Below are positions 29,124-50,418 of a stretch of DNA of 64,000 nt, one piece after another (the first letter of the stretch is position 1; each line of letters begins with the position of its first letter). The notes under the pieces are model-generated. The model worked only from the letters and a program-made list of their open reading frames with translations. It was not told where the DNA came from and did not search any database. Origin of the DNA: Polyangiaceae bacterium (GTDB lineage: Bacteria; Myxococcota_A; Polyangia; Polyangiales; Polyangiaceae); contig JAICQO010000010.1 in assembly GCA_025937835.1 (NCBI GenBank), positions 54,803 to 118,802 on the forward strand. Reading direction: 5' to 3'. Made by a program: the position numbers and the translations under genes.

Positions 29124-29819
29124 TCAAACAGTGAGGTACTTGCTCACTACGTCCCCCGTGAGCTCGCCGATCTCCCCGGCAGCCACGCGGCGGCCGCGGT
29201 CCATGATCGCGAAGCGGTCGGCCACCTTGCGCACGAACGGGAGCTTCTGCTCGACGAGCAGGATCGTCAGCTTCTCGCTGCGGTTCAGCTCGAGCAGCAC
29301 CTCGGCGATGTGCGAGACGATGTTCGGTTGAATGCCCTCGGTGGGCTCGTCCAGGATCAAGAGCTTGGGATCGAGCGCCAGCGCGCGCCCCATCGCCAGC
29401 TGCTGCTGCTGGCCGCCGGACAGATCACCGCCGCGCCGGCGCATCATGCTCTTCAAGACCGGGAACAGCTTGAAGATCCGCTCCGGGATCTCTTTCTTGC
29501 CGTCGGGACGCGCGGCAAGTCCCACGCGCAGGTTCTCCTCGACCGTGAGCTGGCTGAAGATGTCGCGCCCCTGCGGCACGTAACCGATGCCGGCGCGGGC
29601 GCGGGACTCCGGCGCGCTCTTGGTGAGCTCACCCTTGCCGAAGCTGATCTTGCCCGACTGGCTCTTGAGGATGCCCATGACGGTCTTCAAGAGCGTGGTC
29701 TTGCCCACGCCGTTTCTGCCCATCAAGCAGGTGCACGAGCCTTCCGGGATCTCGAGGTCCATGTCCCAGAGCGTGTGGCTCTCGCCGTAGAACTGGTTCA
29801 GCTTCGCGACCTCAAGCAT
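29124..29819 (-). CDS. urtE: Urea ABC transporter ATP-binding subunit UrtE
   Basis: The 231-residue ATPase has Walker A GRNGVGKTT, signature DLSGGQQQQLAMGRAL and Walker B LLILDEPTEGIQP. The opening MLEVAKLNQFYGESHTLWDM and length fit UrtE of the branched-chain-amino-acid-type urea importer (LivF-like). The start overlaps the urtD stop by 8 bases. It is the last gene of urtABCDE. Confidence 0.93.
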   Translation of the reverse strand: MLEVAKLNQFYGESHTLWDMDLEIPEGSCTCLMGRNGVGKTTLLKTVMGILKSQSGKISFGKGELTKSAPESRARAGIGYVPQGRDIFSQLTVEENLRVGLAARPDGKKEIPERIFKLFPVLKSMMRRRGGDLSGGQQQQLAMGRALALDPKLLILDEPTEGIQPNIVSHIAEVLLELNRSEKLTILLVEQKLPFVRKVADRFAIMDRGRRVAAGEIGELTGDVVSKYLTV

Positions 29820-30768
29820 CCGCGCCTCCCAAGTACACCTCGATCACCTTCGGATCGGCCTGAACCGCGTCCATCGAGCCTTCGGCGAGCACGCGCCCTT
29901 CGTGGAGCACGGTCACCGTCTTGGCGATGCTGCGCACGAACTCCATGTCGTGCTCGACGACGACCACGGTGTGCTCCCCGGCCAGGCCGTTCAAGAGCTC
30001 GGCCGTCTTCTCCGTCTCTTTGTGGGTCATGCCCGCGACCGGCTCGTCCACCAGCAGCACGCGCGGCTCCTGCGAGAGCAACATGCCGATCTCGAGCCAC
30101 TGCTTCTGCCCGTGCGAGAGCAGGCCGGCCCGCTTCTGCGCTTCGTCCTTCAGGCCGATGATTTCGAGCACGCGCTCGATCTTCTCCCGCTCGGTGCGGG
30201 TGAGCCGCGCGAACAGCGACGAGAACACGCGCTTCTTGCCGGGCAACGTGAGCTCGAGGTTCTCGAACACGCTGTGGCCCTGGAACACGGTCGGGCGCTG
30301 GAACTTCCGGCACACGCCGCGCTGCGCGATCTCGTCCTCGCGGAGCTGGGTGAGGTCCTGGTCGTCGCCGATCAGGAACACCGAGCCGGTGTCGGGCTTG
30401 GTCTTGCCCGTGATCACGTCTTGCAACGTGGTCTTGCCGGCGCCGTTCGGGCCGATGATGCAGCGGAGCTCGCCTTCGTCGAGCACCAGCGTGAGGTTGT
30501 CGAGCGCCTTGAAGCCGTCGAAGCTGACGCTCACGCTGTCCACGCAGAGCAGGGCCTTGCGGCCGTGGGTGAGCTCGTCGACCCGAGACTGGTCGACGGT
30601 TCGCTTCTTCGGCAACCAGCTGATCCTCGGGCTGCGGGCCTTTCGCGGGGATTCAGGCGCGTTGTCGCTGGGCCGTTTGGCTTCGGCCTCGGCGTGGGTC
30701 ACGGGCTTGGCCGGCTCGATCGGCTCTTCTACGACGGCGTTCAGCGGTGCAGATTCGGTTGCGCTCAT
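29812..30768 (-). CDS. urtD: Urea ABC transporter ATP-binding subunit UrtD
   Basis: The start ATG at 30768 shares ATGA with the urtC stop; the 709-residue ORF-track version reads through urtC out of frame. The 318-residue ATPase has Walker A GPNGAGKTT, TKPDTGSVFLIGDDQDLT, signature LLSHGQKQWLEIGMLL and Walker B VLLVDEPVAGMTHKETE, which is characteristic of UrtD (GMTDxET). An N-terminal extension of ~75 residues, Pro/Ala/Lys-rich (EEPIEPAKPVTHAEAEAKRP), is longer than usual. Confidence 0.93.
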   Translation of the reverse strand: MSATESAPLNAVVEEPIEPAKPVTHAEAEAKRPSDNAPESPRKARSPRISWLPKKRTVDQSRVDELTHGRKALLCVDSVSVSFDGFKALDNLTLVLDEGELRCIIGPNGAGKTTLQDVITGKTKPDTGSVFLIGDDQDLTQLREDEIAQRGVCRKFQRPTVFQGHSVFENLELTLPGKKRVFSSLFARLTRTEREKIERVLEIIGLKDEAQKRAGLLSHGQKQWLEIGMLLSQEPRVLLVDEPVAGMTHKETEKTAELLNGLAGEHTVVVVEHDMEFVRSIAKTVTVLHEGRVLAEGSMDAVQADPKVIEVYLGGADA

Positions 30769-31910
30769 TTCTTCACCCGGACGCGCTCGAGGGCGCCGAC
30801 CAAGCCTTGCGGCAAGAACAAAGTCACGGCGATGAACAGCGCGCCGAGCACGTACAGCCAGAACTCCGGCATCGCCACCGTGAACCAGCTCTTCGCGCCG
30901 TTCACGACGAAGGCGCCGATCGGCGCACCGATCAGGCTGCCTCGGCCCCCGACCGCGACCCAGATCGCCATCTCGATCGAGTTCGAGGGCTGGAGCTCGC
31001 TCGGGTTGATGATCCCGACCTGCGGAACGTAAAGGGCGCCGGCAAAGCCGCAGATCACCGCCGACAGCGTGTACACGAACAGCTTGTAGTTCGTGGGGTT
31101 GTAGCCCGCGAACATGGTCCGGCTCTCTTCGTCGCGGATCGCACGCAGCACGCGACCCGCCTTCGAGGTGGTGACGAAGCGAGCGATCAGGAAGGCCACG
31201 AACAGCCCCGCCGCCGACAGCATGTACAGCATCAGCTTCGTGCCCTGCTCGTGCAGGGAGTAGCCGTAAATTTCCTTGAAATTCGTGAGACCATTGTTGC
31301 CGCCGAGCGCCGTCTCGTTGCGGAAGAACAGGAGCATCAGCGCGAAGGTCAGGGCCTGGGTGATGATCGAAAAATACACGCCACGGATCCGCGAGCGGAA
31401 CGCGAAGAACCCGAAGCAATACGCGAGCAGGCCGGGCACGAGCATCGCGGCCAGGCAGGCGACCAGGAAGTTGTCGAACGGCTTCCAGAACCAGGGCAGC
31501 TCCTTCCAATCGAGGAACACCATGAAGTCGGGCAGCTTGCTGCGATATACGCCGGCATCGCCGATCGCGAGCATCAGGTACATGCCCATGGCGTAGCCGC
31601 CGAGCGCGAAGAACACGCCGTGTCCGAGGCTCAGGATCCCGGCGTAGCCCCAGAGCAGGTCCATCGCGACCGCGACCGTCGCAAAGCAGAAGAACTTGCC
31701 GAACAGCGTGACCAGGTAGTCCGGCAGGTGCAACGCCGAGTCCGGCGGCAGGCCGTTCAGGATCGGCACGATCGCCACGCTCAGCGCGAGCAGCACGGCG
31801 AAGCTCAGGTAGCCGCGCTTGGACAGCACGCTCTCGAGGCGAACCGCCGCGGGCGCCGGTGATTTCGGCTGGGCTGCGGGCGCTTTCGCTGCCGGTTTCT
31901 CGTCGCTCAC
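30765..31910 (-). CDS. urtC: Urea ABC transporter permease UrtC
   Basis: GTG 31910 is the start, overlapping the urtB stop as GTGA. The 381-residue multi-pass protein has the LivM/UrtC core: LLWGYAGILSLGHGVFFALG, SRIRGVYFSIITQALTFALM and IWVAVGGRGSLIGAPIGAFV. A cytoplasmic Ala/Pro/Lys-rich N-terminal tail of ~25 residues precedes the first helix. It pairs with UrtB to form the translocation pore. Confidence 0.93.
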   Translation of the reverse strand: MSDEKPAAKAPAAQPKSPAPAAVRLESVLSKRGYLSFAVLLALSVAIVPILNGLPPDSALHLPDYLVTLFGKFFCFATVAVAMDLLWGYAGILSLGHGVFFALGGYAMGMYLMLAIGDAGVYRSKLPDFMVFLDWKELPWFWKPFDNFLVACLAAMLVPGLLAYCFGFFAFRSRIRGVYFSIITQALTFALMLLFFRNETALGGNNGLTNFKEIYGYSLHEQGTKLMLYMLSAAGLFVAFLIARFVTTSKAGRVLRAIRDEESRTMFAGYNPTNYKLFVYTLSAVICGFAGALYVPQVGIINPSELQPSNSIEMAIWVAVGGRGSLIGAPIGAFVVNGAKSWFTVAMPEFWLYVLGALFIAVTLFLPQGLVGALERVRVKK

Positions 31911-33523
31911 GAGACCTCCGCGGCGCGGCCCTTGAGAGCAAAGATGCCCTGTGGCCGCCGCTGGATGAATAGGATGATGAACACCAAGATCGCGATCTTT
32001 CCGAGCACGGCGCCGGCCACCGGCTCGAGCAGCTTGTTGACGATGCCGAGGCCGAAGGCTCCCGCGAGCGTGCCCGCGAGCTTGCCGACTCCGCCCAGCA
32101 CCACGACCATGAACGAATCGACGATGTAGCCCTGACCGAGCTCGGGCCCCACGTTGCCGAGCTGCGACAGCGCCACGCCGCCGAGCCCGGCCACGCCGGA
32201 GCCGATGCCGAAGGTCCACATGTCCACGCGCCGGGTGGAGATGCCCATGCTCGCAGCCATGGCGCGGTTCTGCGTCACCGCTCGCACGTGCAGCCCGAGC
32301 GGCGTGCGCTGCAGCATGAACCAGACGAACGCCACCACCACCGCCGCAAACAGGATCACGGCCACGCGGCTGTAGGTGAGCACGAACCCGGGCAGGAGCT
32401 CGACGCCGCCGGCGATGAAGCTCGGGTTCGCGACCGTCACGTTCTGGGCGCCGAAGATCAGGCGCACGGTCTGGATCAGGATCAGCGAGATGCCCCAGGT
32501 GCAGAGCAGCGTCTCGAGCGGACGGCCGTAGAAGAAGCGGATCACGCTGCGCTCGAGCAGCACGCCGATCGCCGCGGAAACCACGAACGCCACGGGGATC
32601 GAGAACACCAGGTACCAGTCCGAGTGATCCGGCAGGTAGCTCTGAAAGGCCTTCTGTACGACGTAGGTCGAGTACGCGCCGATCATCAACAGCTCGCCGT
32701 GCGCCATGTTGATCACGCGCATCAGGCCGAAGGTGATCGCGAGCCCGAGCGCTGCGAGCAGCAGCACGCTGCCGAGGCTCAGGCCGTAAAACAAATGACC
32801 GATCAACCCGAACCACAGCGCGCGGAGCTCGATCGCCGCCTTGGCGCTGTCGGCCGCCAGCCTCACCTCGGGGTTCTTCTCGACGAACTCTCCGCTCGGG
32901 GTGCGCTCGAGCACGCGCTCGACGTCGGGCTTGAAGTTGGGATCGGCGGACGCTTCGATGGCGTGCAGGGCGCGCAGCTTGAGCGCGACGTCGGTGCCCG
33001 AAAGGTCCAGCGGAGCGAGCGCCAGCTCGAGCTTCGCCTTGACCTCGGAGTCCTTCTCCACCGACAGGGCCTTCCGCACGACCGGCGCGAGCTCGTCGTT
33101 GCGGCGCTTGGCGAGATCTTCGGCGGCCTCGAGACGAACGTCCTTGTCCGGGGACGTGAGCCGCAGCGAGGCAATCGCAGGTTCCAGCGTGCGGCGCAGC
33201 TGGTTGTCCACCAGCGGCGGCTTTCCGTTCTCGGGCTTGGGCGGAGCGCCGGGGCTCAGCACGGTGACGCTACCGTCTTCGGCGACGCGGTAGGCGTTGC
33301 CGGCGGCGTCTACCTGCAGCTGGTCGTCGAGCAGCGCGACCAGGATCGACAGCGCCTGCGCATCGCGCCGCGCCAGGATCGAGTTCACCGCGCTCTCCAC
33401 CTTGCCGCGGTCGCTCGAGTTCAGAGCGCGCAGGTCTTCGGAGAGCTGATCGGCGCGGGCCGGGCTCGAAAATGCCGCGAACAACGCGCACAGCAGCAAA
33501 ATTTTCGCAAATAGCTTGGGCAT
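31907..33523 (-). CDS. urtB: Urea ABC transporter permease UrtB
   Basis: The start at 33523 gives MPKLFAKILLLCALFAAFSS, a signal peptide cleaved near ARADQ; nine ORF-track residues were dropped. As in other UrtB proteins a periplasmic N-terminal region (~200 residues, HEAT-like: VRLEAAEDLAKRRNDELAPV) precedes the LivH-type permease, with ITFGLMRVINMAHGELLMIG and MWTFGIGSGVAGLGGVALS. Length 538 fits the family. Next to urtA, gap 69 bases. Confidence 0.93.
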   Translation of the reverse strand: MPKLFAKILLLCALFAAFSSPARADQLSEDLRALNSSDRGKVESAVNSILARRDAQALSILVALLDDQLQVDAAGNAYRVAEDGSVTVLSPGAPPKPENGKPPLVDNQLRRTLEPAIASLRLTSPDKDVRLEAAEDLAKRRNDELAPVVRKALSVEKDSEVKAKLELALAPLDLSGTDVALKLRALHAIEASADPNFKPDVERVLERTPSGEFVEKNPEVRLAADSAKAAIELRALWFGLIGHLFYGLSLGSVLLLAALGLAITFGLMRVINMAHGELLMIGAYSTYVVQKAFQSYLPDHSDWYLVFSIPVAFVVSAAIGVLLERSVIRFFYGRPLETLLCTWGISLILIQTVRLIFGAQNVTVANPSFIAGGVELLPGFVLTYSRVAVILFAAVVVAFVWFMLQRTPLGLHVRAVTQNRAMAASMGISTRRVDMWTFGIGSGVAGLGGVALSQLGNVGPELGQGYIVDSFMVVVLGGVGKLAGTLAGAFGLGIVNKLLEPVAGAVLGKIAILVFIILFIQRRPQGIFALKGRAAEVS

Positions 33524-33592
33524 CTCAGGCTCGATGCCAGGGCGGCGCAAACGTCGGCGCCACCCTGGCGCTGGGTGAAAAACGAGCGTGGA

Positions 33593-35008
33593 TTACTTGG
33601 CGGCCGGCTCAGCAGCGGCCACCGCGGCCTCGGACTTGAACTTCGCCTCGGTGCAGTTGCCGCACACCCAGGGGAACGTCCAATCCGCCACCTTCTTCGA
33701 GCTCTCGGGGATGAAGGGGCTCCACGCCTGAGCGCGGATCGGACCCTCGGTCTTTTCCACGACCTGGAACTGACCGTCGGCCTTCACCTCGGCGATGAAC
33801 ACCGGCTTGTGGAGGTGGTGGTTCTTCGCGTCCATCGAGATCACGAAACCGGAGGGCGCCTTCACCGTCTGGTAGCCGATCGCCTGGCGAACCGCGTCGA
33901 TGTTGGTCGTCCCGGCCTGCTCGGCAGCCTGGGCCCACATCTTGATGCCGATGTACGTCGCCTCCATCGGATCGTTGGTGACGCGCTTGTCGGCATCGGG
34001 CAGGTTCTTGGCCTTCGCGTAGGCCTTCCAGTCCGCGATGAACTTCTTGTTCTCGGGCGTGTCGATCGACATGAAGTAGTTCCAGGCGGCGAGGTGGCCG
34101 ACCAGGGGCTTGGTGTCGATACCGCGCAGCTCTTCTTCACCGACGGAGAACGCGACGACCGGGATGTCCGAGGCCTTGAGGCCCTGGTTCGCGAGCTCCT
34201 TGTAGAAGGGAACGTTCGAGTCGCCGTTGATGGTCGAGACCACGGCGGTGGGCGTACCGGCCGCGAACTTCTTCACGTCGGCCACGATGGTTTGGTAGTC
34301 CGAGTGACCGAACGGCGTGTACTTCTCCATGATGTTCGCCTCGGGCACGCCCTTGGACGTCAGGAAGTAACGCAGGATCTTGTTGGTGGTGCGGGGGTAG
34401 ACGTAGTCCGTGCCGAGCAGCACCCACTTCTTGGCGCCGCCGCCCTTCGCGCCCATCAAGTACTCGACGGCCGGGATCGCCTGCTGGTTCGGCGCAGCGC
34501 CCGTGTAGAACACGTTGTAGGAGCTCTCTTCGCCTTCGTACTGGACCGGGTAGAAGAGCAGGCCGTTCAGCTCTTCGAACACCGGCAGCACGCTCTTGCG
34601 CGACACCGAGGTCCAACAGCCGAACACGACCGAGACCTTCTCCTTCTGGATCAGCTCGCGCGCCTTCTCGGCGAACAGCGGCCAGTTGGAGGCCGGGTCC
34701 ACGACCACCGGCTCGAGCTTGCGCTTGAGCACGCCGCCCGCCTGGTTGATCTGCTCGATCGTCATCAGCGCCACGTCCTTCAAGGACGTCTCGCTGATCG
34801 CCATGGTGCCGGACAGGGAGTGCAGAATACCCACCTTGATCGGGCCAGTCTCGGACGCCGCCGTTTCGGCAGGGGCCGGGGCCAAAGCCGCATCCGGCGC
34901 CTTGGCGCTTTCAGCCGGAGCCGGGCTCGTACCGGCCGAGGGGCCCTTACAGGCACCCGCTATCAGTCCCAAAACGCCAACTAGGATCGTCGGAATACGG
35001 ATTTTCAT
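33593..35008 (-). CDS. urtA: Urea ABC transporter substrate-binding lipoprotein UrtA
   Basis: The start at 35008 gives MKIRIPTILVGVLGLIAGAC, a signal peptide with lipobox IAGAC; an AGGAGAG ribosome-binding site lies just upstream. After an Ala/Pro linker the binding domain begins IKVGILHSLSGTMAISETSL, typical of UrtA/FmdD. Other family stretches are GCWTSVSRKSVLPVFEELNG and LFYPVQYEGEESSYNVFYTG. It captures urea (or short amides) in the periplasm for UrtBC. It is the first gene of the urt operon; a stable hairpin precedes it. Confidence 0.95.
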   Translation of the reverse strand: MKIRIPTILVGVLGLIAGACKGPSAGTSPAPAESAKAPDAALAPAPAETAASETGPIKVGILHSLSGTMAISETSLKDVALMTIEQINQAGGVLKRKLEPVVVDPASNWPLFAEKARELIQKEKVSVVFGCWTSVSRKSVLPVFEELNGLLFYPVQYEGEESSYNVFYTGAAPNQQAIPAVEYLMGAKGGGAKKWVLLGTDYVYPRTTNKILRYFLTSKGVPEANIMEKYTPFGHSDYQTIVADVKKFAAGTPTAVVSTINGDSNVPFYKELANQGLKASDIPVVAFSVGEEELRGIDTKPLVGHLAAWNYFMSIDTPENKKFIADWKAYAKAKNLPDADKRVTNDPMEATYIGIKMWAQAAEQAGTTNIDAVRQAIGYQTVKAPSGFVISMDAKNHHLHKPVFIAEVKADGQFQVVEKTEGPIRAQAWSPFIPESSKKVADWTFPWVCGNCTEAKFKSEAAVAAAEPAAK

Positions 35009-35127: not shown

Positions 35128-35490
35128 TCAATCCGCCTCGCTCGCGAAATGAATCGGTGCTTGCCAGAGGATCAACACCAGGCAACCACTCGGACTCTCG
35201 ACGGAATGTGACGTTCCCGGCGGGTTCACCACGAACGTGCCCGCCGCGTACTCGCCGCGCTCGTCGCGCTGGCTGCCCTCGAGCACCAGGATGTGTTCGT
35301 AACCGGGGTGCTCGTGGCGCGGCACGCGCGCGCCGGGCGCGTAGCGGAGCAACGCCGCCGAAGCGCCGGACCGTTCGTCCTTGTACAGCTCCGCAATCTC
35401 GACGCCCTCTCGCATCGGTCGGAAGTCGCGACGCTTCAGAGCGTCGGGCAAGAGCTGAAGCACCAGACGCGCGGGCTCGCTCGCACTCAT
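35128..35490 (-). CDS. Small cupin (ChrR-like)
   Basis: ATG 35490 overlaps the ATPase stop by one base (TGATG), implying coupling. The 120-residue single cupin has metal-site residues in RVPRHEHPGYEHILVLEGSQ and the second motif GTFVVNPPGTSHSVESPSGC, closest to ChrR-type anti-sigma cupins. Its place as last gene of the BMP/biuret-hydrolase operon suggests a role in the same pathway, either as a small-molecule sensor or as an enzyme; neither can be decided. Confidence 0.8.
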   Translation of the reverse strand: MSASEPARLVLQLLPDALKRRDFRPMREGVEIAELYKDERSGASAALLRYAPGARVPRHEHPGYEHILVLEGSQRDERGEYAAGTFVVNPPGTSHSVESPSGCLVLILWQAPIHFASEAD

Positions 35491-37070
35491 CAGTGGTGCG
35501 CCCCGCCCATGTGCCGTCCGATGTCCGCCATGTTCGCCTCGCTCGCCTTCGACTCGTAGACGATGCGCCCCTCGCTCATGACCAAGATCCGATCGGAGAG
35601 CGCGAAAATTTCCTCGAGGTCCGAGCTCACGAGCAACACGGCGCTCCCCGAGTTCCGCGCCGCCATGATGCGCGTGCGGATCTCGCTGACCGCCGCGAAA
35701 TCCAGCCCAAAACAAGGGTTGGCCGCGATCAGCACGTTGACCTCTCCGGTGAGCTCACGCGCCAGGACGGCGCGCTGCACGTTGCCGCCCGACAGCCCGG
35801 CGATCGGCGCGTCGGGACCCGGCGCCTTGATGCCGTACTCCTGGATCGCGGCACGCGCGCGGCTGCGCAGCGCGCTTCCTCGCACGAGCCAGCCCAAGCT
35901 CGTGTTGGGCGGCTCGTCGTAGCAGCGGAAGCCGATGTTCTCGGCGACGGACATGTTGCCGACGCAGGCGTTCTTGAGCGGCGCCTCGGGGAGCAGCCGC
36001 ACACGGCGCTGGCGCATCTGCGCGCGGGTCGGCGTGTAGTCCTTCCCGTCCACGCGCACGCTGCCGGAAGATGTCGGCCGTTGGCCGGCGAGCACCTCGA
36101 CCAGCTCGTCCTGGCCGTTGCCGGAGACGCCGGCGATGCCGACGATTTCTCCAGCGGCCACGCTCAGGCTCACCTCTTCCAGCACCTTCAGCCCGAGGTC
36201 GTCGTTGGCAGAGAGCTTGTCGAGCTCGAAGAACTTCGCCGCGCCCTCGAGCTCGCGGCGCTCGAGCGAGGCCCTCGGCACCTCCGCGCCGACCATCATC
36301 TCGGCCATGGCTTCCGGCGTCAGATCGCGCGTCTTTCCCGTGCCGGCCAGCTTGCCGCGGCGGAGCACCGTGACCTCGTCCGAATAGGCCACGACCTCGC
36401 GGAACTTGTGGGTGATCATCGCCACGCTGACGCGCCCCTGATAGGCCATCTCGCGCAACATGCCGAGCACCTCGTCGGCCTCTTGCGGCGTGAGCACGCT
36501 GGTCGGCTCGTCCAGGATCACGATCCGGCTGCCGACGTAGAGCTGCTTCAGGATCTCGAGCTTCTGCTTCTCGCCGGCTGCGAGCTTGCGCACCAGCCGC
36601 TCGGGAGAGATGCGGAAGGGCATCTCGTCCATGAACTCCTCGAGCTCCCGCTTCTCCTTCTTCCAATCGATGATGCGCGGCACGTCGGCGCGCGAGAGCA
36701 CCAGGTTTTCGGCCACGCTCATGTTCTCGACCAGCGTGAAGTGCTGATAGACCATGCCGATACCGTGGCGCTGAGCCTCCTTCGGGCTCTTCACGGTGAT
36801 CGGCTGGCCACCGACGAGGAGCTTGCCCTCGTCGGCCTGGTAGAAGCCCATGATGCACTTGACCAGCGTGCTCTTGCCCGCGCCATTTTCACCCAGCAAG
36901 GCGTGGAACGAGCCCGGGGTCAGCTTGAAGTCGACGGAGTCGAGCGCCGCGAGCCCGCCGAAGCGCTTGCTGACACCGACGGCCTCGAGCGAAAGTGGAG
37001 GCTGCCGCGCCCGCACGTGCGACGTGTCGAGCGTGCTCTCGAGACGAACGACCTCCGCCGCGGCCGTCAC
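35490..37070 (-). CDS. BMP-type ABC transporter ATP-binding protein (double NBD)
   Basis: GTG 37070 starts within the biuret-hydrolase stop (GTGA). The 526-residue protein holds two nucleotide-binding domains in one chain, as in RbsA/YufO-like importers. The first has [20 protein letters not shown] and [17 protein letters not shown]. The second has a degenerate P-loop ([11 protein letters not shown]) and a good signature [14 protein letters not shown]. It would power the two permeases and BMP binding protein encoded upstream. The biuret-hydrolase gene lies between it and the permeases. Confidence 0.92.
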
Positions 37071-37762
37071 GACAGCGCCTCGAGCAGCGCGCGCGAGGTG
37101 CTGTGCGCGCCGAACACGCCGCTCTGCATGGTGATCATCTTGAGCGCCGCGTCGTGGTTGCCGGCGTCGGTCGCTGCGCAGCAATCGCCCACGAGCAGGC
37201 ACTCGTAGCCGCGGTCGTTGGCCTCGCGCATCGTGGTGTGGACGCACACGTCGGTGGTGATGCCGGTGAGCACGATGTTGTGGATCCCGCGCTGCCTCAG
37301 GATCAGATCGAGATCGGTCGCGCAGAACGAGCCCTTGCCCGGCTTGTCGATGATCGGCTCGCCGGGCAGCGGCGCGAGCTCGGGGATGATGTCCCAGCCC
37401 GGCTCGCCCCGGACCAGCACGCGGCCGCACGGCCCCGGATCGCCGATGCCCGTCAGGCCGGAGCTGCCGTCGGGGCGGCGCCGCGAGCGCCAGCGTTTGT
37501 TCGCCGGCAAGTCCGACAAATCCGGACGGTGGCCTTCGCGGGTGTGGATGACGTGGTACCCGCCCTGGCGAAACTTCGCCAAGAGCTTTTGGATCGGCGC
37601 GATGCAAGCCCGGGAGTTTTCGAGATCGTAGCCCTGCAGATCGATGTAGCCGCCCTTGCCGCAGAAGTCGGTCTGCATGTCGATCACGATCAGCGTCGTG
37701 TTCTCGGGGCGCAGATCGCCGTCGTAGGGCCAGGGGTAAGGGTTTGCCGGGACGAAGGTCAT
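37067..37762 (-). CDS. biuH: Biuret hydrolase-like cysteine hydrolase (isochorismatase fold)
   Basis: The 231-residue protein follows Rhizobium biuret hydrolase almost end to end: [86 protein letters not shown] and [20 protein letters not shown]. The Asp-Lys-Cys triad is Asp28, Lys140 and Cys173. A 6-residue insertion lies after NKRWRSRR. Biuret hydrolase converts biuret to allophanate and ammonia; close relatives act on triuret or guanylurea, so the exact ureide is not certain. It sits inside the BMP transporter operon, 21 bases after a permease gene and overlapping the ATPase gene by 4, which suggests the transporter brings in its substrate. Confidence 0.88.
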
Positions 37763-37783: not shown

Positions 37784-38719
37784 TTAGCGGGATACCGACA
37801 GCTCCGCGGGCATGTCTGCAGAGGCTTCGGTCGCCGAGCTCGACAGCACCATGATCAAGAGCGTGAGCGCGTAAGGCGCCGCATTGAACAGGTAATAGCC
37901 CGACGTCACGCCGACCGACTGCAGCGCCGGTCCGAGCGCGCTCGCGCCGCCGAACAAGAGAGAAGCGTACAGACAGCGCACTGGATCCCAGCGCGCGAAG
38001 ATCACGAGCGCGACGGCCATCAGGCCCTGACCGCTCGACAGCCCCTCGTTCCAGCTGCCCGGGTAGAACAGCGACAGGAACGACCCGCCGATGCCGGCCA
38101 GCGCACCGCCGACGACGGTGGCGAGCAGCCGCACCTGGAGCACGTCGTAGCCCATGGCCCGCGCGGCCTCCGCGCCCTCGCCGACCACGCGCAGCACCAT
38201 GCCCGAGCGCGTGTTGGCCAGGGCCCAGCGCAGCGCCGGCGCGAGCGCGAGACCGACCAGGAACAACACGTTGACCTCGAGCGCCGAGCGCACCTGCGGC
38301 GAGTCGCTGAAGAACCCGAACGGGATCGACGGCAAGCGCGGCGCGCTCGGCTGGATCAGCGGTTTTCCTAGGAAAAATGCCAGCCCGATGCCGAACAGCA
38401 TCAGCGCGATCCCGACCGCGATGTCGTTGACGCGCGGGCGCCCGCACAGAAAGCCGTGGAGCGCGCCGAGCAACGCGCCGATCGCCGAGGCCGCGAGCAC
38501 GCCGAGCCACGCCGAGCCGGTCAGGTACGACACGCCGTAGCCGCTCATCGCGCCCATCACCAGCGTGCCCTCGAGCCCGAGGTTCACGCGGCCCGACTTC
38601 TCGGTGATGCACTCACCGAGGCTCACGAACAGAAATGGCGTGCTGATCCGGATCGCGCCGCCGAGCACCGCCAGCGGCACGCCCCAGATCCCGATCGAGC
38701 TCGCGTCGACGCCTTCCAT
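37784..38719 (-). CDS. BMP-type ABC transporter permease (second)
   Basis: The 311-residue membrane protein has about eight to nine helices and the YufQ/RbsC-type core GLEGTLVMGAMSGYGVSYLT and GQGLMAVALVIFARWDPVRC. STPFLFVSLGECITEKSGRV at the N-terminus is typical of the shorter permease of nucleoside-type BMP importers. It lies 12 bases after the other permease gene and pairs with it. Confidence 0.9.
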   Translation of the reverse strand: MEGVDASSIGIWGVPLAVLGGAIRISTPFLFVSLGECITEKSGRVNLGLEGTLVMGAMSGYGVSYLTGSAWLGVLAASAIGALLGALHGFLCGRPRVNDIAVGIALMLFGIGLAFFLGKPLIQPSAPRLPSIPFGFFSDSPQVRSALEVNVLFLVGLALAPALRWALANTRSGMVLRVVGEGAEAARAMGYDVLQVRLLATVVGGALAGIGGSFLSLFYPGSWNEGLSSGQGLMAVALVIFARWDPVRCLYASLLFGGASALGPALQSVGVTSGYYLFNAAPYALTLLIMVLSSSATEASADMPAELSVSR

Positions 38720-38731: not shown

Positions 38732-39850
38732 TCAGCTCCCGCCGAGCGCGCGCGGCACGAGCCGGATACGCCCCTGGTAGGTCTCGCTCGCGAGTAACAC
38801 CACGAACAGCGTGCCCTGCAGCACCGCCACGGCCGCGTCCGGCAAGCCGAACGCCCGCTGCAGCAAGCCGCCGCTCGCGCCGATACCTCCGAGCAGCAGC
38901 GACACCGGAATGATCGCCAGCGGATTTTGCCGGGCCAGGAACGCCACCAAAATGCCCGAGTAGCCGTAGCCAGCGACCAGGGAGGCGTTGGCGCGGCCGT
39001 GAACGGCAGCGACCTCGACCATACCCGCGAGCCCCGCGGCCGCGCCGGCCAGGCAACAGGTGATGATCACGAGCTTCTTCACGCCGAGACCGCTGAGGCG
39101 CGCCGCGCGCACGTTGCCTCCGACGATCCGCCCACCGAAGCCGAAGGTCGTGCGGTCCATCAGCACGTAGCAGACGAGGCAGGCCACGATGCCGAACACC
39201 AGACCGAGGTGCACGTCGAACCCCGGCGTGTTGGCGAGCATGTTGTGATCGCCGATGTGCACGGTGGACGGCTTGTTGAGGCTGGTCGGATCCTTCAGCG
39301 GGCCTTCGACCAGATGATTGAGCAACGCGATCGCGATGTACGACAACAGCAAGCTGCTGATGGTCTCGTTCACTCCGCGCAGCACGCGCAACGCTCCTGC
39401 GGCGCCGATCCACAGCGCCCCCGCCGCCATGCCGAAGGTCGCCATGGCCAGCGTCACGACCGGCGGTGGCGCGCCGCCGAGGGCGGGACCTATCGCCGCC
39501 GCTGCCACGCCGCCCATCACCAGGGCGCCTTCGCCGCCGATCACAATCAGCCCGAGCCGCGCCGGCAGCGCGGTGCACAGGCCCGTCAACATCAGCGGCG
39601 CGGCGCGTAGCAGCGTATTTTGGAACGAGAACCAGGTTCCGAACGCGCCGCGGTACATCTCCGCGTACACGTCGAGCGGCGAATTCCCCGTGAACGCGAC
39701 GAAGACGCCGAACAGCGCGAACGACACCAGCAGCGCCGCGAGCGGCACCGCCAGGCTTTCGAAGAACCGGAAGACGCGGGCGAGCGCGAGCTTCGAGACC
39801 GAGTCGGGCTGCTCGGTCTGCGCCGTGCCGAGGCTCGCGGAGGCGCTCAT
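38732..39850 (-). CDS. BMP-type ABC transporter permease (first)
   Basis: The 372-residue membrane protein is of the YufP type: LARVFRFFESLAVPLAALLV as first helix, a periplasmic loop SPLDVYAEMYRGAFGTWFSF, LIVIGGEGALVMGGVAAAAI, and LRGVNETISSLLLSYIAIAL, the conserved EAA-like cytoplasmic segment. Spaced 6 bases from the BMP gene. Confidence 0.9.
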   Translation of the reverse strand: MSASASLGTAQTEQPDSVSKLALARVFRFFESLAVPLAALLVSFALFGVFVAFTGNSPLDVYAEMYRGAFGTWFSFQNTLLRAAPLMLTGLCTALPARLGLIVIGGEGALVMGGVAAAAIGPALGGAPPPVVTLAMATFGMAAGALWIGAAGALRVLRGVNETISSLLLSYIAIALLNHLVEGPLKDPTSLNKPSTVHIGDHNMLANTPGFDVHLGLVFGIVACLVCYVLMDRTTFGFGGRIVGGNVRAARLSGLGVKKLVIITCCLAGAAAGLAGMVEVAAVHGRANASLVAGYGYSGILVAFLARQNPLAIIPVSLLLGGIGASGGLLQRAFGLPDAAVAVLQGTLFVVLLASETYQGRIRLVPRALGGS

Positions 39851-39856
39851 CGCTGC

Positions 39857-41041
39857 CTACTTCACGGAGCCTTTGACGCCCTCGACCAGGTACGCCATTT
39901 TTTCGAGCTCGATGTCGCGCTGACCGCGCTCGGTCCCGGCAGGGATCACCTCTTTGCCGGCGTTGTCCTGGATCGGGCCCTTGAAGATCACGAGCGTGCC
40001 GGCGGTGAGCGCCGCCTTGGCCTCGTCCGCCTTCTTCTTGGCTTCCTCCGACACGGCCGGGCCGTACGCCGACATCTTGATGTAGCCCTCTTTGAAGCCG
40101 CCACGCACCAGGTGCTCGATCGGCTTCTTGTTCTGCACCGTGTCGATGTAGCCCTTGTACACGGCCTCCCAGTTCCACTCGGCGCCCGTCAGGTAACCCT
40201 TCGGCGCGAGCTTGGCCTGGCTTGCGTGATAGCCGGTGGTGAAGGCATTTCGGCGCTCCGCCGTCTCCATCAGCACCTTCGGCGAATCGACGTGGCCGGT
40301 GATCACGTCCGCGCCCTGGTCGATCAGGCTGTTGGCGGCCTCGGCCTCCTTGACCGGCAGCGACCAGTCGCCCGTGAAGATCACGCTCAGCGTGGCCTTG
40401 GGGTTTACCGACTTCGCGCCCAGCGCGTAGGCGTTGATGTTGCGAAGCACTTGCGGGATCGGCTTCGCTGCCACGAACCCGAGCTTGTTCGTCTTGGTGG
40501 TGAGCCCCGCGACGATGCCCGAGACGTACTCTGCCTCGTCGATGTAGCCGAAGTAGCTGCCGACGTTCTTCGGATGCTTGCCTTCGGTGTACAGGCCGCC
40601 GCAGTGGAAGAACGTCACGTTCGGGTACTTCTCCGCCATCTTCAGGATGTGCGGGTCGAAGTAGCCGAAGGACGTGGGGAACAAGAGCTTCGCCCCGTCC
40701 AGGTTGATCATGCTCTCCATCGTGTTCTGAACAGCGACGTCTTCCGGGACCTTCTCCTCCTCGCGGATCTTGAGGTTGGGCAGCGTGGCGACGACCTTCG
40801 CGCCCTCGGCGTGGGCCTGGTTGTAGCCGTAGTCGTCCTTCGGTCCGACATAGATGAAGCCAACGGTCAGCTTGCCGTCGTCGGCCGGCGCGGCAGCCGC
40901 CGTCTCCCCCGAGGCCGTGCTGGCGGCGGCGGGCTCGGTCTTCTTGTTGCAGCCGATGCCGGCCATCAGGGCGATAGCGCCCAGCACTAACCGGAGGGTG
41001 ATTCTGCGGGCGAAGGGGGACTCGTAAGCTCGTTGGGCCAT
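39857..41041 (-). CDS. BMP family substrate-binding lipoprotein
   Basis: MAQRAYESPFARRITLRLVL with IALMAGIGC is a signal peptide with lipobox AGIGC. The 394-residue mature protein begins KLTVGFIYVGPKDDYGYNQA and contains SYFGYIDEAEYVSGIVAGLT, matching BMP/PnrA-like binding proteins (peripheral-binding fold, otherwise known for nucleosides). Because the same operon carries a biuret hydrolase, I infer a ureide, purine-derived or similar nitrogenous ligand. It is the first gene of the operon. Confidence 0.9.
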   Translation of the reverse strand: MAQRAYESPFARRITLRLVLGAIALMAGIGCNKKTEPAAASTASGETAAAAPADDGKLTVGFIYVGPKDDYGYNQAHAEGAKVVATLPNLKIREEEKVPEDVAVQNTMESMINLDGAKLLFPTSFGYFDPHILKMAEKYPNVTFFHCGGLYTEGKHPKNVGSYFGYIDEAEYVSGIVAGLTTKTNKLGFVAAKPIPQVLRNINAYALGAKSVNPKATLSVIFTGDWSLPVKEAEAANSLIDQGADVITGHVDSPKVLMETAERRNAFTTGYHASQAKLAPKGYLTGAEWNWEAVYKGYIDTVQNKKPIEHLVRGGFKEGYIKMSAYGPAVSEEAKKKADEAKAALTAGTLVIFKGPIQDNAGKEVIPAGTERGQRDIELEKMAYLVEGVKGSVK

Positions 41042-41381: not shown

Positions 41382-42779
41382 ATGAACAAACTGGATTCCT
41401 TGGTGTGTCGTTTCGTCGTCGGACTCGGTACGACCGCCGTCTCGACAATCGCGCTGGCCCAGCCGGCCCCTGCCCCCGCGCCGGCTCCGGCTCCTGCCCC
41501 GGCTCCTGCCCCTGCCCCGGCTCCCCCCGTCGATGCGGCTCCGGCCGCGCCCGAGCCCGTCGCAGAACCGGCTCCGCCGCCGCCCGCTCCTCCCCCGCCG
41601 GTCGAGGAAGCACCGCCGCCGCCCCCGGTCGACGTGGCTCCCCCACCCGCGCCCGAGCCGGCTCCGGAAGAGACCTTCAAGGTCACGACCGGCGTTGGCT
41701 TCCGCGCCGCGCTGCGCTTTCAAGACACGACGGACCAGGAGAAGATCACGGGCGATCAGTCGTTCGACGAGCTCTACGTCGAGCCGCGTTTCAGCGGCAA
41801 AGTGACCGACGTCGTCGGTTGGACGGCGAACTTCCAGGGCAGCGGCCGCACCACGGACGGTCTGCCTGCTTCGCCGGGCAACCCAGCGAAGTTCGAGCTG
41901 CGCGTCCTCGATCTCGTCGGTCAGCTCGACTTCATGGATGAGTTCCACGTCTGGATGGGCCGCATGCTCACGCCCGCCGACCGCGCGAACTTCAGCGGCC
42001 CCTGGTTCATTCCGGAGTGGACGTATCCGGGCTCGTACCTCGCCTACGGCGGCGGCGTTTACGTCGGTCCCCGTGGCACCGAGGAGTTCGGACGTGAAAC
42101 CGGCGTCGTCGCCTGGGGCGACATCGGCGGCGGCAAGTTCAAGTATTACCTCGGCGCGATGGATCTCGACGGCAACGTCGGCGTGGATGCGGCGGGGGAC
42201 ACCGTGTTCGGCGGCGCCAACTCGGAGAGCCCGCTGTACTCGGCGCGCCTGTCGTACGCGATCCTCGGCTCCGAGCCGGGCTTCTACGGCAGCAGCACCT
42301 ACTACGGCGCGCAGGACATCGTCGCGATCGGCGCCGCGTTCCAGTACCAGAAGGACTTCACGGGTGCCTCGGGTAACACCGGCCTCCAGGACGACGTGCT
42401 CGAGTTCAACGCGGACCTCCTCGCCGAGTACAACACGAAGGGCTCCGGGACCGTGCGCTTCGAAGGCGGCTACTACCACTTCGACACGAACGCGATGCCC
42501 ATGGACGATCACTTCTACGTCTCGGCCGGCTACCTCACGCCGGAGAACATCGGCATCGGCAAGCTGAACCCGATCGTCCGCTTCCAGATGGCGAAGAAGG
42601 GTGAAGACGAGGAGACCGGGCCGGAAGCGACGCTGCAGATGATCGACGCTCAGCTGGCGTACGTGATGAAGGACTACTTCGCGAAGCTCATGCTCGTCTA
42701 CACGAACGGCAAGTTCGAGAGTGGCGACACGACCGTGAAGTCGAACGCCGTCCAGCTCGGCTTCCAGATCCAACAGTAA
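41382..42779 (+). CDS. Outer-membrane porin-like beta-barrel protein
   Basis: The start at 41382 (MNKLDSLVCRFVVGLGTTAV) gives a signal peptide cleaved near ALAQP. A long Ala/Pro repeat (~residues 28-95) looks like a peptidoglycan- or cell-wall-spanning linker. The following ~370 residues alternate hydrophobic and polar residues with aromatic girdles, and end in VQLGFQIQQ, consistent with a barrel of phosphate-selective-porin type. Placement divergent to the BMP/biuret operon suggests it admits urea or ureides, as amide/urea porins do in other operons. That is inference only. Confidence 0.72.
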   Translation: MNKLDSLVCRFVVGLGTTAVSTIALAQPAPAPAPAPAPAPAPAPAPAPPVDAAPAAPEPVAEPAPPPPAPPPPVEEAPPPPPVDVAPPPAPEPAPEETFKVTTGVGFRAALRFQDTTDQEKITGDQSFDELYVEPRFSGKVTDVVGWTANFQGSGRTTDGLPASPGNPAKFELRVLDLVGQLDFMDEFHVWMGRMLTPADRANFSGPWFIPEWTYPGSYLAYGGGVYVGPRGTEEFGRETGVVAWGDIGGGKFKYYLGAMDLDGNVGVDAAGDTVFGGANSESPLYSARLSYAILGSEPGFYGSSTYYGAQDIVAIGAAFQYQKDFTGASGNTGLQDDVLEFNADLLAEYNTKGSGTVRFEGGYYHFDTNAMPMDDHFYVSAGYLTPENIGIGKLNPIVRFQMAKKGEDEETGPEATLQMIDAQLAYVMKDYFAKLMLVYTNGKFESGDTTVKSNAVQLGFQIQQ

Positions 42780-43960: not shown

Positions 43961-44288
43961 ACTCGACACGCTCGCTACTCGGGTCGCTCTGGGCTTTGAC
44001 GCTGCTCGCGGCCTTCGCCTGCGACTCCCAAACCAACGAGCAATCCTCGAGCTCTACCCACTGGGTGACCTGCGACACGGATCAGGACTGCGCGCTGCAT
44101 CCGAGCCATCCAACCTGCGACGCCGGGTATTGCGTGAACGAGTCCGGAGAGCGATTGGAGGACGACCAGACGACCGGCGGTCGAGGCCCTGTTCCGGGAG
44201 CGACGGGCGGCAACGCTCCGAGCTTCGGCGGGGCGCTGAACCCGACGAACGGCGGCTCCTCACCCGTCGCTAGCGGCGGAGCAGCGAT

Positions 44289-44391
44289 CAGCGGCGCGGG
44301 CGGAGAGCCAACCAGCGGCGGAGCAGCGGCCAGCGGCGCGGGCGGAGAGCCAACCAGCGGCGGAGCAGCAGTCAGCGGCGCGGGCGGAGAG
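44289..44391 (+). repeat. 42-base tandem repeat in the Hint lipoprotein gene
   Basis: Two full 42-base units and a partial third encode SGAGGEPTSGGAA(A/V) in the linker. Near-identity at the DNA level points to recent expansion. Confidence 0.85.
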
Positions 44392-45253
44392 CAAGCAGGC
44401 GGCAATGGGGGCGATCCCGGGAGCTCGACCGAAGGTGGCGCCTCTGGCGTCGAGCCCGGCTCCGCCTGCTCCGGCCCCGAACCCTACACCCGGCCCGACC
44501 TCGACAAGACCTGCGAGACCTCGAGCGATTGCTTCGCGGGACGGCACCTGGTCGACTGCTGCGGCACGACCCTCTGGCTCGCCTACAGCGAGGCCGCGCG
44601 CGCCGATTTCGAGCAGGCAGAGTCGGGGTGCACGGCTACTTGTCCGTGCCCCATCCGCCCGACACGCGCCGAAGACGGCGCAGAGCTCGATCCGGCGGAC
44701 GCTGTCGCCGACTGCGTCGACGGCAGGTGCATGGCCCGACATCCGGACAACGCCGGAGAATGCCTGGGCCCCGGGGAGTGCATCGACCTAGACACGGGGC
44801 TGTGCCTCGGCGCGGAAGGACCGCTGATAGACGGCATCTGCCGCGGCGCAGGCGGGGTCTGCATTCTGTGCGAGTGCGCTTCCCCGGATACGCCGGTCGC
44901 AACCCCCAAGGGTGATGTCGCGATCTCCGAGCTCCACGCGGGGGACCTCGTGTACAGCATCGACGGCGCGGCGATCCGCGCTGTGCCGATCACGGCGGTC
45001 CATCGAAACCCGGTCGAGCACCACCGGGTCGTGGAGGTGCGCCTCGAGAGCGGCGCCGTGCTCGCGATCAGCGCTTCCCATCCGATCGCGGACGGCCGCA
45101 CGTTCGCCGAGCTGCGGGCCGGGACGGCGCTCGGTGACTCGCAGATCGCGAGCGTGCGGCTCGTTCCCTACTCACACCCGTTCACGTACGACATCCTGCC
45201 CGACTCGGACACGGGAGTGTACTTCGTTGCCGGGGCGGCGCTCGGCAGCACGC

Positions 45254-45910
<657 letters not shown>

Positions 45911-45936: not shown

Positions 45937-46641
45937 CTAAGACCGGAAGAGCCGGCTGTACTGGGTTTCGTGGGCCGCCGAGAGCAGCGCCTGGCCGGGC
46001 GCGGTCGCGGCGATGTCTTCGTCTTCCAGCGCGAGCGCGCGGGAGAATTGGGCGTCGAGCCGGGCGATCGCGGCCGAGAGCACGAGCTGTGCGTCGCTCT
46101 GGCCGAGCGGGATCAGCCGCGTCGCCGCGCCGACCTGAGCCTCGCACCAGGCGAACGAGTAAGTGAGCGCCGAGGCTTCGCTCGACAAGCCGAAGCAGCG
46201 CGCCGCGAGCGCGAACGCGGCGGCGAGCGTCGCCCGCGAGCGCTCGAGGTAGCGCTTGGCTCGTGCCTCCCCCTGACGCTCGAGGAAGCGCAACAGCGAG
46301 CGCCCGAGCTGGCGCTCCTCGGCGCGGAGCTCGTGCGTCGGCCGGCTCGCGTACAGAAAGTCGCTCCAGCGATCGGCCTCGTCGAGTTGCTCGCCCGCGA
46401 GCGCCCGCTGGATCCGCGACAACACCGGCAGATCGAGCCCGAGCAGAGAGTGCTCGAGCATGCCCTCGATCCAGCGAGAAGCGCTCGATCGGTCGCTCAC
46501 CGCGCCGGTCGCCACGGCCTGCTCCAGGGCCTGCGAGTAAGCGAAGGCGCCGATCGGCAGCGCGGCGCTCCCGAGCCGGAGCGCCCCGAGAAACGCAGCC
46601 GGCGAGCTGAGGCTGATCTCAGTGCTCGTGCCCGTGTCCAT
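45937..46641 (-). CDS. ureF: Urease accessory protein UreF
   Basis: The start at 46641 gives [20 protein letters not shown]; it overlaps ureE by 23 bases. The 234-residue helical protein has the UreF signatures [20 protein letters not shown] and [10 protein letters not shown] at the C-terminus. UreF controls GTP hydrolysis and nickel release by UreG in the UreDFG activation complex. It ends 26 bases before the ureG start. Confidence 0.93.
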
Positions 46642-47109
46642 CGCCGTGGTCGTGTGCGTGGCCGTCGTGGGCGTGACCATGACCGCCACCGTACCCCCCG
46701 GCTTCGGGCTCGAACGGCAAGCGCTCGGTGTGCACCTCGAGCCCGAGCTCGCGGCACAACCCGTCGAGCACGTGATCGTGCGGGTAGAGCACGCGCCCGG
46801 TCTCGATCTGCAGCGGCACGTGGCGGTTGCCGAGGTGATACGCGGCGCGCGCCAGCAAGTGCAGATCAGAGGTGCGCGCGACCGACAGGCTCTCCAGGTC
46901 GGCGGCGACGCGCGCCACCACGACACCGTCCTCGGAGCGCAGCCGATCGCCGTCGCGGAGCAGAGTGCCCCGCGGCAACGAGATCCCAACCTCCACATTG
47001 CCCGCCAGCATCAACCGCAGCCGCGAGCGGCGGCGCCGGTCGTGATCGAGCGGGATCACCAGCGTGGGTTCGGCTGCGTCGTGCGCGGGGAGGACGGCAG
47101 TGAAGCGGA

Positions 47110-47113
<4 letters not shown>
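46619..47113 (-). CDS. ureE: Urease nickel chaperone UreE
   Basis: TTG 47113 is the best start because it overlaps the ureC stop (TTGA) and opens [20 protein letters not shown]. The 164-residue protein has [19 protein letters not shown], a conserved [13 protein letters not shown] with the dimer-interface His, and a C-terminal His-rich tail ([20 protein letters not shown]) that binds several nickel ions, as in Klebsiella UreE. Confidence 0.92.
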
Positions 47114-48809
<1,696 letters not shown>

Positions 48810-48813
<4 letters not shown>

Positions 48814-49451: not shown

Positions 49452-49560
49452 ATGCCGGTGGTGTTTCGATAGACGCGCCGGGCGGTCGGCGTAAAGCGCT
49501 TTCACGCCGCAGCGCGGGAAAGTTGCGCTGGAAACCGGCTGGCAACGTTGGGGGCGCGAT

Positions 49561-50418
49561 TTACGTCGACCAGATGCGCGGGAGCGTCGCGGGGCGGCCG
49601 ATGACGTCGGGACGCAGTGCGGCCCAGGCTCGAATCAGCACGCGGCGCACGGCTTCGGTTGAGTCACCCAGGGCGCGCACGACGAGCAGCTCTTCGAGCG
49701 CGGTGACGGAGCAAGAAACGGCGGGCTCGGCCGGTAGCTCGCGGAGGACTTTGGTGAGCTCGGGGAGGGCGGTGGGCTCGGCGGGCACGGCGTACAACAC
49801 GCCGGCGACAGGGCGCGAGGCGTAGCCCCAGGCTTCGCGGAGCACCTCGGAGCCGCCCACGACGCGGGCGCGCTCGATGAGCAGCGGCTCGGCGCCGCGG
49901 AAGATCTCGAAGCCCAGCGACACTTCCCCGCGGTCGAAGCGGATGCCGCTCGCGGGGCGCCCCCAACAACTGATTTCCCAGGCCACGGCCGCGGCGCCGG
50001 GCGCGAGCTCGAGGCGCGTCGACTGGCGAGCGCGCGCGGCGTCGAAGGCGATGTTTTCGGACGGCAACCACTCGAGCGTCGCGCCCGCAGCAACCGACAG
50101 GGTCGTGGTCAGCCGACTCGTGGGGCCAGCGGAGCGGTACCACTTCTGGGCAGCGGGAGTCGTGAGCAGCGCCGAGGCCCCCTGCCCGATCCGCACCGAC
50201 ACATCGAGCAGGTCGCCACCGACCACGCCACCGGGCGGGTGCAGCACGTAGAGGTGCACGACCTCCGGCCCCTCGGGATAAAATGGGCGCTGCACGTAGA
50301 GCGGGCCGACGTGACTGCGCCGCTCGAGCGCCGAACGGCCCGCGACGCGCCCTATCTCGAGCTCGAGCCGTCCGACCCAGCCGCGGTTGTCCGGAGTCGA
50401 AGCAGGGGCAGCGTTCAT
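49561..50418 (-). CDS. ureD: Urease accessory protein UreD (UreH)
   Basis: The 285-residue protein has [33 protein letters not shown], and [20 protein letters not shown], all conserved in UreD. UreD is the scaffold that joins UreF/UreG to apo-urease. It is the first gene of the operon, 109 bases upstream of ureAB, and is preceded within 20 bases by the stop of the metalloprotease gene on the same strand. Confidence 0.94.

What the first reader, a model, noticed from the sequence alone, without database searches (positions are those of the whole stretch)
29124..50418. 21-kb urea/ureide nitrogen region with two ABC importers, a biuret-hydrolase-like enzyme, a porin and urease
urtABCDE, a BMP-type importer operon with a BiuH-like hydrolase and a cupin, a divergent porin, an HTH/Hint pair and a full ureD-AB-C-E-F-G operon lie side by side. 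Together they could take ureides from the medium through to ammonia. This combination in a myxobacterium, a predator and saprophyte usually thought to live on amino acids, suggests scavenging of urea and ureides.
Basis: partly seen in the sequence, partly recalled or inferred. Interest (0 to 1): 0.75.

Follow-up and report, generated by a model that had tools for sequence, protein, structure and literature searches.

The report
Biuret-triuret-urea nitrogen scavenging gene island
This myxobacterium (family Polyangiaceae) carries, side by side, the genes to import and break down biuret and urea, a cluster that its relatives keep together in reshuffled order; this extends a known nitrogen-scavenging pathway to a predatory group and suggests a role for an unexplained small enzyme-like gene in it.

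Summary
The window holds a BMP-type ABC importer operon with biuret hydrolase (BiuH, above NCBI's curated cut-off) and a small cupin, then urtABCDE, a divergent 16-strand porin and a complete urease operon. The HTH/Hint pair is unrelated.

Of 108 genomes of the same family, 19 carry BiuH and all 19 also carry UrtA. The porin occurs only in UrtA+ genomes and lies beside these genes in 13 of 18. The blocks stay adjacent, but reordered, in at least three genera, so the clustering is not chance.

The 21 kb is not a complete pathway. BiuH makes allophanate, not urea. The triuret hydrolase TrtA and the allophanate hydrolase AtzF lie on other contigs of this genome.

The BMP-BiuH operon is already known from rhizobia and nitrifiers. 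New here are its occurrence in Polyangiaceae, its union with urt, ure and a porin, and two testable leads. First, BiuH-linked BMP proteins have lost the purine-binding glutamate of AtzT, so the published label 'nucleoside transporter' is probably wrong. Second, the cupin sits in the slot after TrtA and never co-occurs with the AtzH-like decarboxylase (0 of 67 loci), so it may replace it.

All functions are inferred; nothing was assayed.

The parts
39857..41041 (-). BmpA: BMP-type periplasmic binding lipoprotein, first gene of the importer operon; inferred ligand biuret/triuret
   Evidence: Pfam Bmp 141.6 bits; nearest solved relative AtzT 6PI5; binding-site Glu165->Gln typical of BiuH-linked members
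38732..39850 (-). BMP importer permease 1
   Evidence: BPD_transp_2; same order in BiuH loci of other phyla
37784..38719 (-). BMP importer permease 2
   Evidence: BPD_transp_2; conserved order
37067..37762 (-). BiuH, biuret amidohydrolase (biuret -> allophanate + NH3)
   Evidence: NF050097 395.6 > 370; aligns with R. leguminosarum BiuH 6AZO, E 1e-113, catalytic Asp/Lys/Cys and Lys145/Gln215 kept
35490..37070 (-). BMP importer ATPase with two ABC domains; GTG start overlaps the biuH stop
   Evidence: two ABC_tran stretches; downstream of BiuH in 71 of 76 loci; start
35128..35490 (-). small Cupin_7 protein, start overlaps the ATPase stop; candidate replacement for the AtzH-like decarboxylase TrtB
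   Evidence: PF12973 79 bits; metal ligands H59, H61, E65, H95 invariant in 23 homologues; mutual exclusion with AtzH-like
33593..35008 (-). UrtA urea-binding protein
   Evidence: TIGR03407 570.3 > 492.75
31907..33523 (-). UrtB permease
   Evidence: TIGR03409 423.2 > 250.3; ATG 33523
30765..31829 (-). UrtC permease (start approximate)
   Evidence: TIGR03408 448.3 > 296.2
29812..30615 (-). UrtD ATPase (start approximate)
   Evidence: ABC_tran plus BCA_ABC_TP_C; urea-specific model not run on this protein
29124..29819 (-). UrtE ATPase
   Evidence: TIGR03410 329.5 > 285.8
41382..42779 (+). cluster-specific porin, Pro-rich N-terminal stretch plus 16-strand barrel, divergent from bmpA
   Evidence: AlphaFold2 barrel; Foldseek to OmpT/OprP/OmpC porins, E 1e-12 to 1e-9; tracks UrtA in the family
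49561..50418 (-). UreD
   Evidence: Pfam UreD 178.7 bits
48810..49451 (-). UreAB, fused urease gamma and beta subunits
   Evidence: Pfam Urease_gamma and Urease_beta
47110..48813 (-). UreC, catalytic urease alpha subunit
   Evidence: Pfam Urease_alpha and Amidohydro_1
46619..47059 (-). UreE (start approximate)
   Evidence: Pfam UreE_N and UreE_C
45937..46641 (-). UreF
   Evidence: Pfam UreF 122.4 bits
45254..45910 (-). UreG
   Evidence: Pfam cobW/HypB/UreG 139.9 bits

Best explanation
The region is a nitrogen-scavenging island of Polyangiaceae that joins two neighbouring pathways. Branch 1: biuret and triuret cross the outer membrane through the cluster porin and are imported by the BMP-type ABC transporter. 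TrtA (other contig) cuts triuret to 1-carboxybiuret. This loses CO2 to give biuret, perhaps helped by the cupin. BiuH cuts biuret to allophanate and ammonia. AtzF (third contig, apparently in a guanidine/urea carboxylase operon) cuts allophanate to ammonia and CO2. Branch 2: urea, taken up by UrtABCDE or formed when allophanate decarboxylates on its own, is cut by urease. Shown here: gene identities, operon layout, conservation, active-site residues. Inferred: substrates of the importer and the porin, the cupin's role, use of urea leaked from allophanate, and co-regulation.
For: BiuH passes its curated family cut-off, is about 72% identical to the characterised R. leguminosarum enzyme, and keeps its catalytic and binding residues. 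At positions that separate BiuH from TrtA (PMC7948467: Y47, Y53, D173, V218, Ser for A134) it is BiuH-type. A second homologue in this genome (C60:8869-9537) is TrtA-type at F35, N41, E160, Y187, I205 and A134, and matches TrtA 6XIX best. AtzF with its C-terminal domain is present on C114. The same operon order BmpA-P-P-BiuH-ATPase is found in BiuH loci of Proteobacteria, Cyanobacteria and Planctomycetota: BmpA upstream in 66 of 72, ATPase downstream in 71 of 76. It is also on pRL10 of Rhizobium 3841, the source of characterised BiuH. BmpA-type proteins in BiuH loci have Gln at the AtzT Glu165 position in 62 of 69, against Glu in 12 of 12 other BMP proteins. In 108 family genomes BiuH, UrtA, BmpA and porin co-occur, and the clusters are contiguous in several reshuffled orders. 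In G077 (locus L002) all parts lie on one strand: TrtA-porin-BMP/BiuH-cupin-ureDABCEFG-urt.
Against: No assay or expression data. TrtA and AtzF are not linked to the window in this assembly of 227 contigs. No sigma-54 site, riboswitch or conserved regulator was found to show nitrogen control. The Glu-to-Gln change could follow clade rather than substrate. Co-occurrence statistics are not corrected for phylogeny. No uricase was found in the genus, so the biuret or triuret would have to come from outside.
Confidence: 0.78

Rival explanations
1. The BMP importer carries nucleosides or purine bases, as a recent paper labels it (bmpA-nupABC), and BiuH acts on minor by-products of purine breakdown.
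For: BMP proteins of known structure bind nucleosides or guanine/adenine; AtzT, the nearest solved relative, holds guanine (PMC6834077). PMC12625717 calls the same genes an ABC nucleoside transporter.
Against: The Glu that hydrogen-bonds guanine in AtzT is Gln in 62 of 69 BiuH-linked members and Glu in all 12 other BMP proteins tested. The operon is fixed to BiuH across phyla. No uricase in the genus. BmpA with 70% identity or more occurs only in BiuH+ family genomes.
Confidence: 0.15
2. Urease is a functional part of the biuret branch: allophanate mostly decarboxylates to urea and is finished by urease, with AtzF serving guanidine breakdown instead.
For: Allophanate spontaneously gives urea (PMC6219798). 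AtzF here lies beside a urea/guanidine carboxylase fragment; homologous operons in L157 and L163 carry a Guanidine-II riboswitch. Five BiuH+ genomes of genus g47, two of them single-contig, have urease (four of five) but no AtzF above cut-off.
Against: Two family genomes, G037 and G068, have AtzF beside BiuH. Earlier work on cyanuric acid degraders found allophanate hydrolase, not urease, doing this step (Cheng et al. 2005, cited in PMC5806882). In g47 urease is far from BiuH.
Confidence: 0.3
3. The neighbourhood is a chance accumulation of unrelated nitrogen genes in one chromosomal region.
For: Order and orientation differ between genomes, and in some (G068, G072, G098, genus g47) the blocks lie on different contigs or far apart.
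Against: BiuH+UrtA within 20 kb in 8 genomes of 3 genera, six of them with urease too; co-occurrence 19/19 against 3/89.
Confidence: 0.05

Closest known systems
BiuH/TrtA operon of Rhizobium leguminosarum (johnstonii) 3841, plasmid pRL10
   Same: BMP protein, two permeases, BiuH, ATPase and cupin in the same order
   Different: pRL10 also has a formamidase, AtzD and TrtA inside the operon; no urt, ure or porin genes within the 16.7 kb examined
Triuret/biuret clusters of ammonia oxidisers (PMC12625717)
   Same: BiuH with bmpA-nupABC, and in AOB a urease cassette nearby on the contig
   Different: There atzF, trtA and trtB are in the cluster; no urt or porin neighbour is described in the passages read. 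Here a cupin stands instead of trtB.
Herbaspirillum TrtA-BiuH-AtzF triuret pathway (PMC7948467)
   Same: Same enzymes are encoded in this genome
   Different: Spread over three contigs; no AtzH-like TrtB in the genus
atzRSTUVW/AtzT of Pseudomonas sp. ADP (PMC6834077)
   Same: BMP-type binding protein serving s-triazine/N-rich compound uptake
   Different: Binding-site Glu165, Asn218, Asn220 are Gln, His, Asp here

Membership tests
Biuret amidohydrolase BiuH (NF050097) | Score above curated cut-off | tested here: met
   395.6 against 370 bits
Biuret amidohydrolase BiuH (NF050097) | Catalytic Asp36/Lys142/Cys175 and substrate residues Phe41, Lys145, Gln215 | tested here: met
   all aligned and identical (residues from PMC5806882)
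Biuret amidohydrolase BiuH (NF050097) | BiuH-type rather than TrtA-type residues at Y47, Y53, D173, V218 and Ser (TrtA A134) | tested here: met
   positions from PMC7948467
Biuret amidohydrolase BiuH (NF050097) | Activity on biuret | not testable with these tools
   needs purified enzyme
Triuret hydrolase TrtA (G000:C60:8869-9537, outside the window) | TrtA-type F35, N41, E160, Y187, I205, A134 | tested here: met
   alignment to 6XIX
Urea ABC transporter UrtABCDE | Subunits above TIGR equivalog cut-offs | tested here: met
   UrtA, B, C, E met; UrtD not run against its own model
Urease | UreA, B, C structural and D, E, F, G accessory domains | tested here: met
   gamma and beta are fused
B6-type BMP importer (NF047927-NF047930) | Scores above cut-offs | tested here: not met
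   59 against 400, 168 against 400, 141 against 465, 430 against 670 bits
ChrR anti-sigma factor | Full-length ChrR with N-terminal zinc domain, above cut-off | tested here: not met
   52 against 124.5 bits, cupin half only
AtzH-like/TrtB decarboxylase (PF11533) | NTF2-fold AtzH-like domain | tested here: not met
   the gene in that slot is a cupin; PF11533 absent from this genome and all BiuH+ family genomes
AtzH-like/TrtB decarboxylase (PF11533) | Works like it (carboxybiuret decarboxylation) | not testable with these tools
   only genomic context

The most novel reading that the evidence does not exclude
The small Cupin_7 protein is an unrecognised metal-dependent 1-carboxybiuret decarboxylase (or related carbamate-cleaving enzyme) that replaces the AtzH-like TrtB in a large part of triuret/cyanuric-acid pathways, including the reference operon of R. 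leguminosarum 3841. The BiuH-linked BMP system is a dedicated biuret/triuret importer rather than a nucleoside transporter.
Probability: 0.35. Interest if true: 0.65.

Novelty: new variant of a known kind. Interest (0 to 1): 0.5.

Why it matters
Papers on triuret/biuret breakdown leave two gaps: which transporter brings these compounds in, and what performs the carboxybiuret decarboxylation where trtB is missing (PMC12625717 says an 'unidentified enzyme' or a spontaneous reaction). The comparison started from this window gives a specific candidate for each, plus a porin. It also places the pathway in predatory soil bacteria, for which a search of 5.39 million open papers found no relevant report of biuret use. 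Triuret crystals are reported in freshwater amoebae (cited in PMC7948467), so prey is one possible source; that link is speculation.

Tried and rejected
HTH/Hint pair as regulators: rejected, no homologue in any other cluster and 7 HTH paralogues in this genome. Sigma-54 control: 420-bp upstream stretches of bmpA, porin, trtA, urtA and ureD in relatives show no site with at most 1 mismatch; 2-mismatch sites are about at background. Uricase as internal source of triuret: none in 8 genus genomes, with the control ringing in 2 known genomes. Cyanuric acid hydrolase AtzD: none found, but no control genome rang, so inconclusive. The idea that AtzF is absent and urease is therefore the only route: rejected for this genome, since AtzF is on C114. 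Cupin as ChrR anti-sigma factor: rejected as membership. Independent-pairs test of the cupin/AtzH exclusion on the BiuH tree: too few supported pairs to decide. Rfam 5' ureB sRNA hit: probably an echo of conserved urease coding sequence.
Full report
What is there. The window lies at bases 54803-118802 of contig 29 of a 6.92-Mb genome in 227 contigs. The BMP operon is tight: the gaps are 6, 12 and 21 bp, and the ATPase and cupin starts overlap the preceding stops. A 119-bp gap without a minus-strand terminator-like site separates the cupin from urtA, so one transcript from bmpA to urtE is possible but not shown.

BiuH. The 231-aa protein passes NCBI's biuret amidohydrolase cut-off (395.6 > 370) and matches the characterised R. 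leguminosarum BiuH structures at E 1e-113, about 72% identity. The catalytic Asp, Lys and Cys and the residues Phe41, Lys145 and Gln215 (PMC5806882) are kept. Positions described as separating triuret from biuret hydrolases (PMC7948467) are BiuH-type. Its product is allophanate, not urea (PMC5806882).

The rest of the pathway is elsewhere in the genome. A TrtA-type homologue, closest to the solved triuret hydrolase 6XIX and carrying the TrtA-type residues, is at C60:8869-9537. A canonical allophanate hydrolase with its C-terminal domain is at C114, beside the end of a biotin-dependent carboxylase. Homologous operons in two family genomes (L157, L163) carry a Guanidine-II riboswitch upstream, which suggests a guanidine carboxylase route that also ends at allophanate. 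The window operon alone therefore does not reach ammonia from biuret unless AtzF acts or allophanate falls apart to urea, which urease would consume. Allophanate does give urea and CO2 spontaneously (PMC6219798). Five BiuH+ genomes of genus g47, two of them single-contig, lack AtzF above cut-off, and four of the five have urease; there the urea route may be the only one.

Conservation. In 108 genomes of the family BiuH is in 19 (one a fragment at a contig edge), UrtA in 22, urease in 51, the window's porin in 18, and BmpA of at least 70% identity in 17. All 19 BiuH+ genomes have UrtA and all 18 porin+ genomes have UrtA (Fisher about 1e-17 to 1e-18; not corrected for shared ancestry). BiuH and UrtA lie within 20 kb in 8 genomes, with urease too in 6 of them, across genera g1, g24 and g41. 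The order is reshuffled. In G077/L002 it is TrtA-porin-BmpA-P-P-BiuH-ATPase-cupin-UreD-AB-C-E-F-G-UrtAB on one strand. In G037 and G080 Urt, Ure, BiuH and porin are together, while their BmpA lies on another contig. The porin lies beside one or more of these genes in 13 of 18 genomes. It is a 16-strand barrel with a Pro-rich N-terminal stretch (pLDDT 70.5 overall, 85-92 in most strands) resembling general and OprP-type porins.

Outside the family. The scan of 84,980 species genomes returned 80 best loci. BmpA lies upstream of BiuH in 66 of 72 with enough flank and the ATPase downstream in 71 of 76, in Proteobacteria, Cyanobacteria and Planctomycetota. pRL10 of Rhizobium 3841, from which BiuH was characterised, has BmpA-P-P-formamidase-BiuH-AtzD-ATPase-TrtA-cupin. 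UrtA is nearby in only 3 of 80, two of them Polyangiaceae and one labelled 'Proteobacteria' (L066). The BMP-BiuH part is thus an old, mobile, known module; its union with urt, ure and porin is the Polyangiaceae variant.

What the importer carries. The nearest solved relative of BmpA is AtzT, which binds guanine through Glu165, Asn218, Asn220, Ser97 and stacking Tyr45/Trp194 (PMC6834077). In 69 BiuH-linked BmpA proteins Glu165 is Gln in 62 and never Glu; in 12 other BMP proteins from the same loci it is always Glu. Ser97, Trp194 and the His/Asp pair are common to both sets. This argues against the published label 'nucleoside transporter' (PMC12625717) and for a non-purine ligand; biuret/triuret is inferred from linkage alone.

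The cupin. It is a ChrR-like Cupin_7 domain, modelled with pLDDT 90.5 and nearest in fold to ChrR and small metal cupin enzymes. His59, His61, Glu65 and His95 are invariant in 23 homologues. In 67 loci of at least 15 kb, 27 have an AtzH-like gene (called TrtB in this pathway), 13 the cupin, 27 neither and none both (p = 9e-4; TrtA+ loci only, 0 of 49 with both, p = 3e-5). Several alphaproteobacterial loci have either gene directly after TrtA, often overlapping it. PF11533 is absent from all BiuH+ Polyangiaceae. PMC12625717 notes that comammox clusters lack trtB and suggests an unidentified enzyme. Cautions: the AtzH-like family is the one NCBI names HpxZ in plasmid records; in betaproteobacteria it may accompany AtzE and act on 1,3-dicarboxyurea (PMC6219798); the exclusion follows clades in part, and only few supported switches exist on the BiuH tree; many loci have neither gene, so the step may also run unaided.

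Verdict. It is a new variant of a known kind with two leads that a short set of binding and enzyme assays could settle.

Noticed in passing
window 48379-48662 (+): Rfam 5' ureB sRNA (RF02514, 82.5 bits) antisense to ureC; probably reflects conserved urease coding sequence rather than an RNA.
   Followed up: no
window 42950-45288 (+): HTH protein overlapping a Hint-domain lipoprotein gene; the HTH has 6 further paralogues in this genome and homologues in 6 of its 7 genus mates; function unknown.
   Followed up: partly
G000:C45:41344-42417 (L172): A second, divergent Urt-like operon (UrtA about 40% identical) in the same genome, also in most genus mates.
   Followed up: no
L157:3101-3150, L163:2627-2676: Guanidine-II riboswitches upstream of UAAP/carboxylase/AtzF operons in Polyangiaceae.
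   Followed up: partly
L063, L066, L072, L156, L183, L185: An NCS2-like permease lies beside TrtA/BiuH, in several of these loci where the BMP importer is missing; possible transporter swap. In Pantoea plasmids a cytosine permease takes this place.
   Followed up: partly
L205 (NZ_CP056374.1): A complete AtzF-BMP-BiuH-TrtA-GntR operon between IS elements on a conjugative IncFII Klebsiella plasmid: a recently mobile nitrogen trait.
   Followed up: no
L201:6962-7309, L202:6977-7330: The small cupin is annotated 'allophanate hydrolase' in AP027374.1 and CP030828.1, a likely misannotation.
   Followed up: partly
genomes G099, G100, G101, G103, G104 (genus g47): BiuH, a second homologue and the BMP operon present, but no allophanate hydrolase above cut-off.
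   Followed up: partly
window 50437-52836 (-): Protein with four STIG1-like stretches and a weak metallopeptidase match next to ureD.
   Followed up: no
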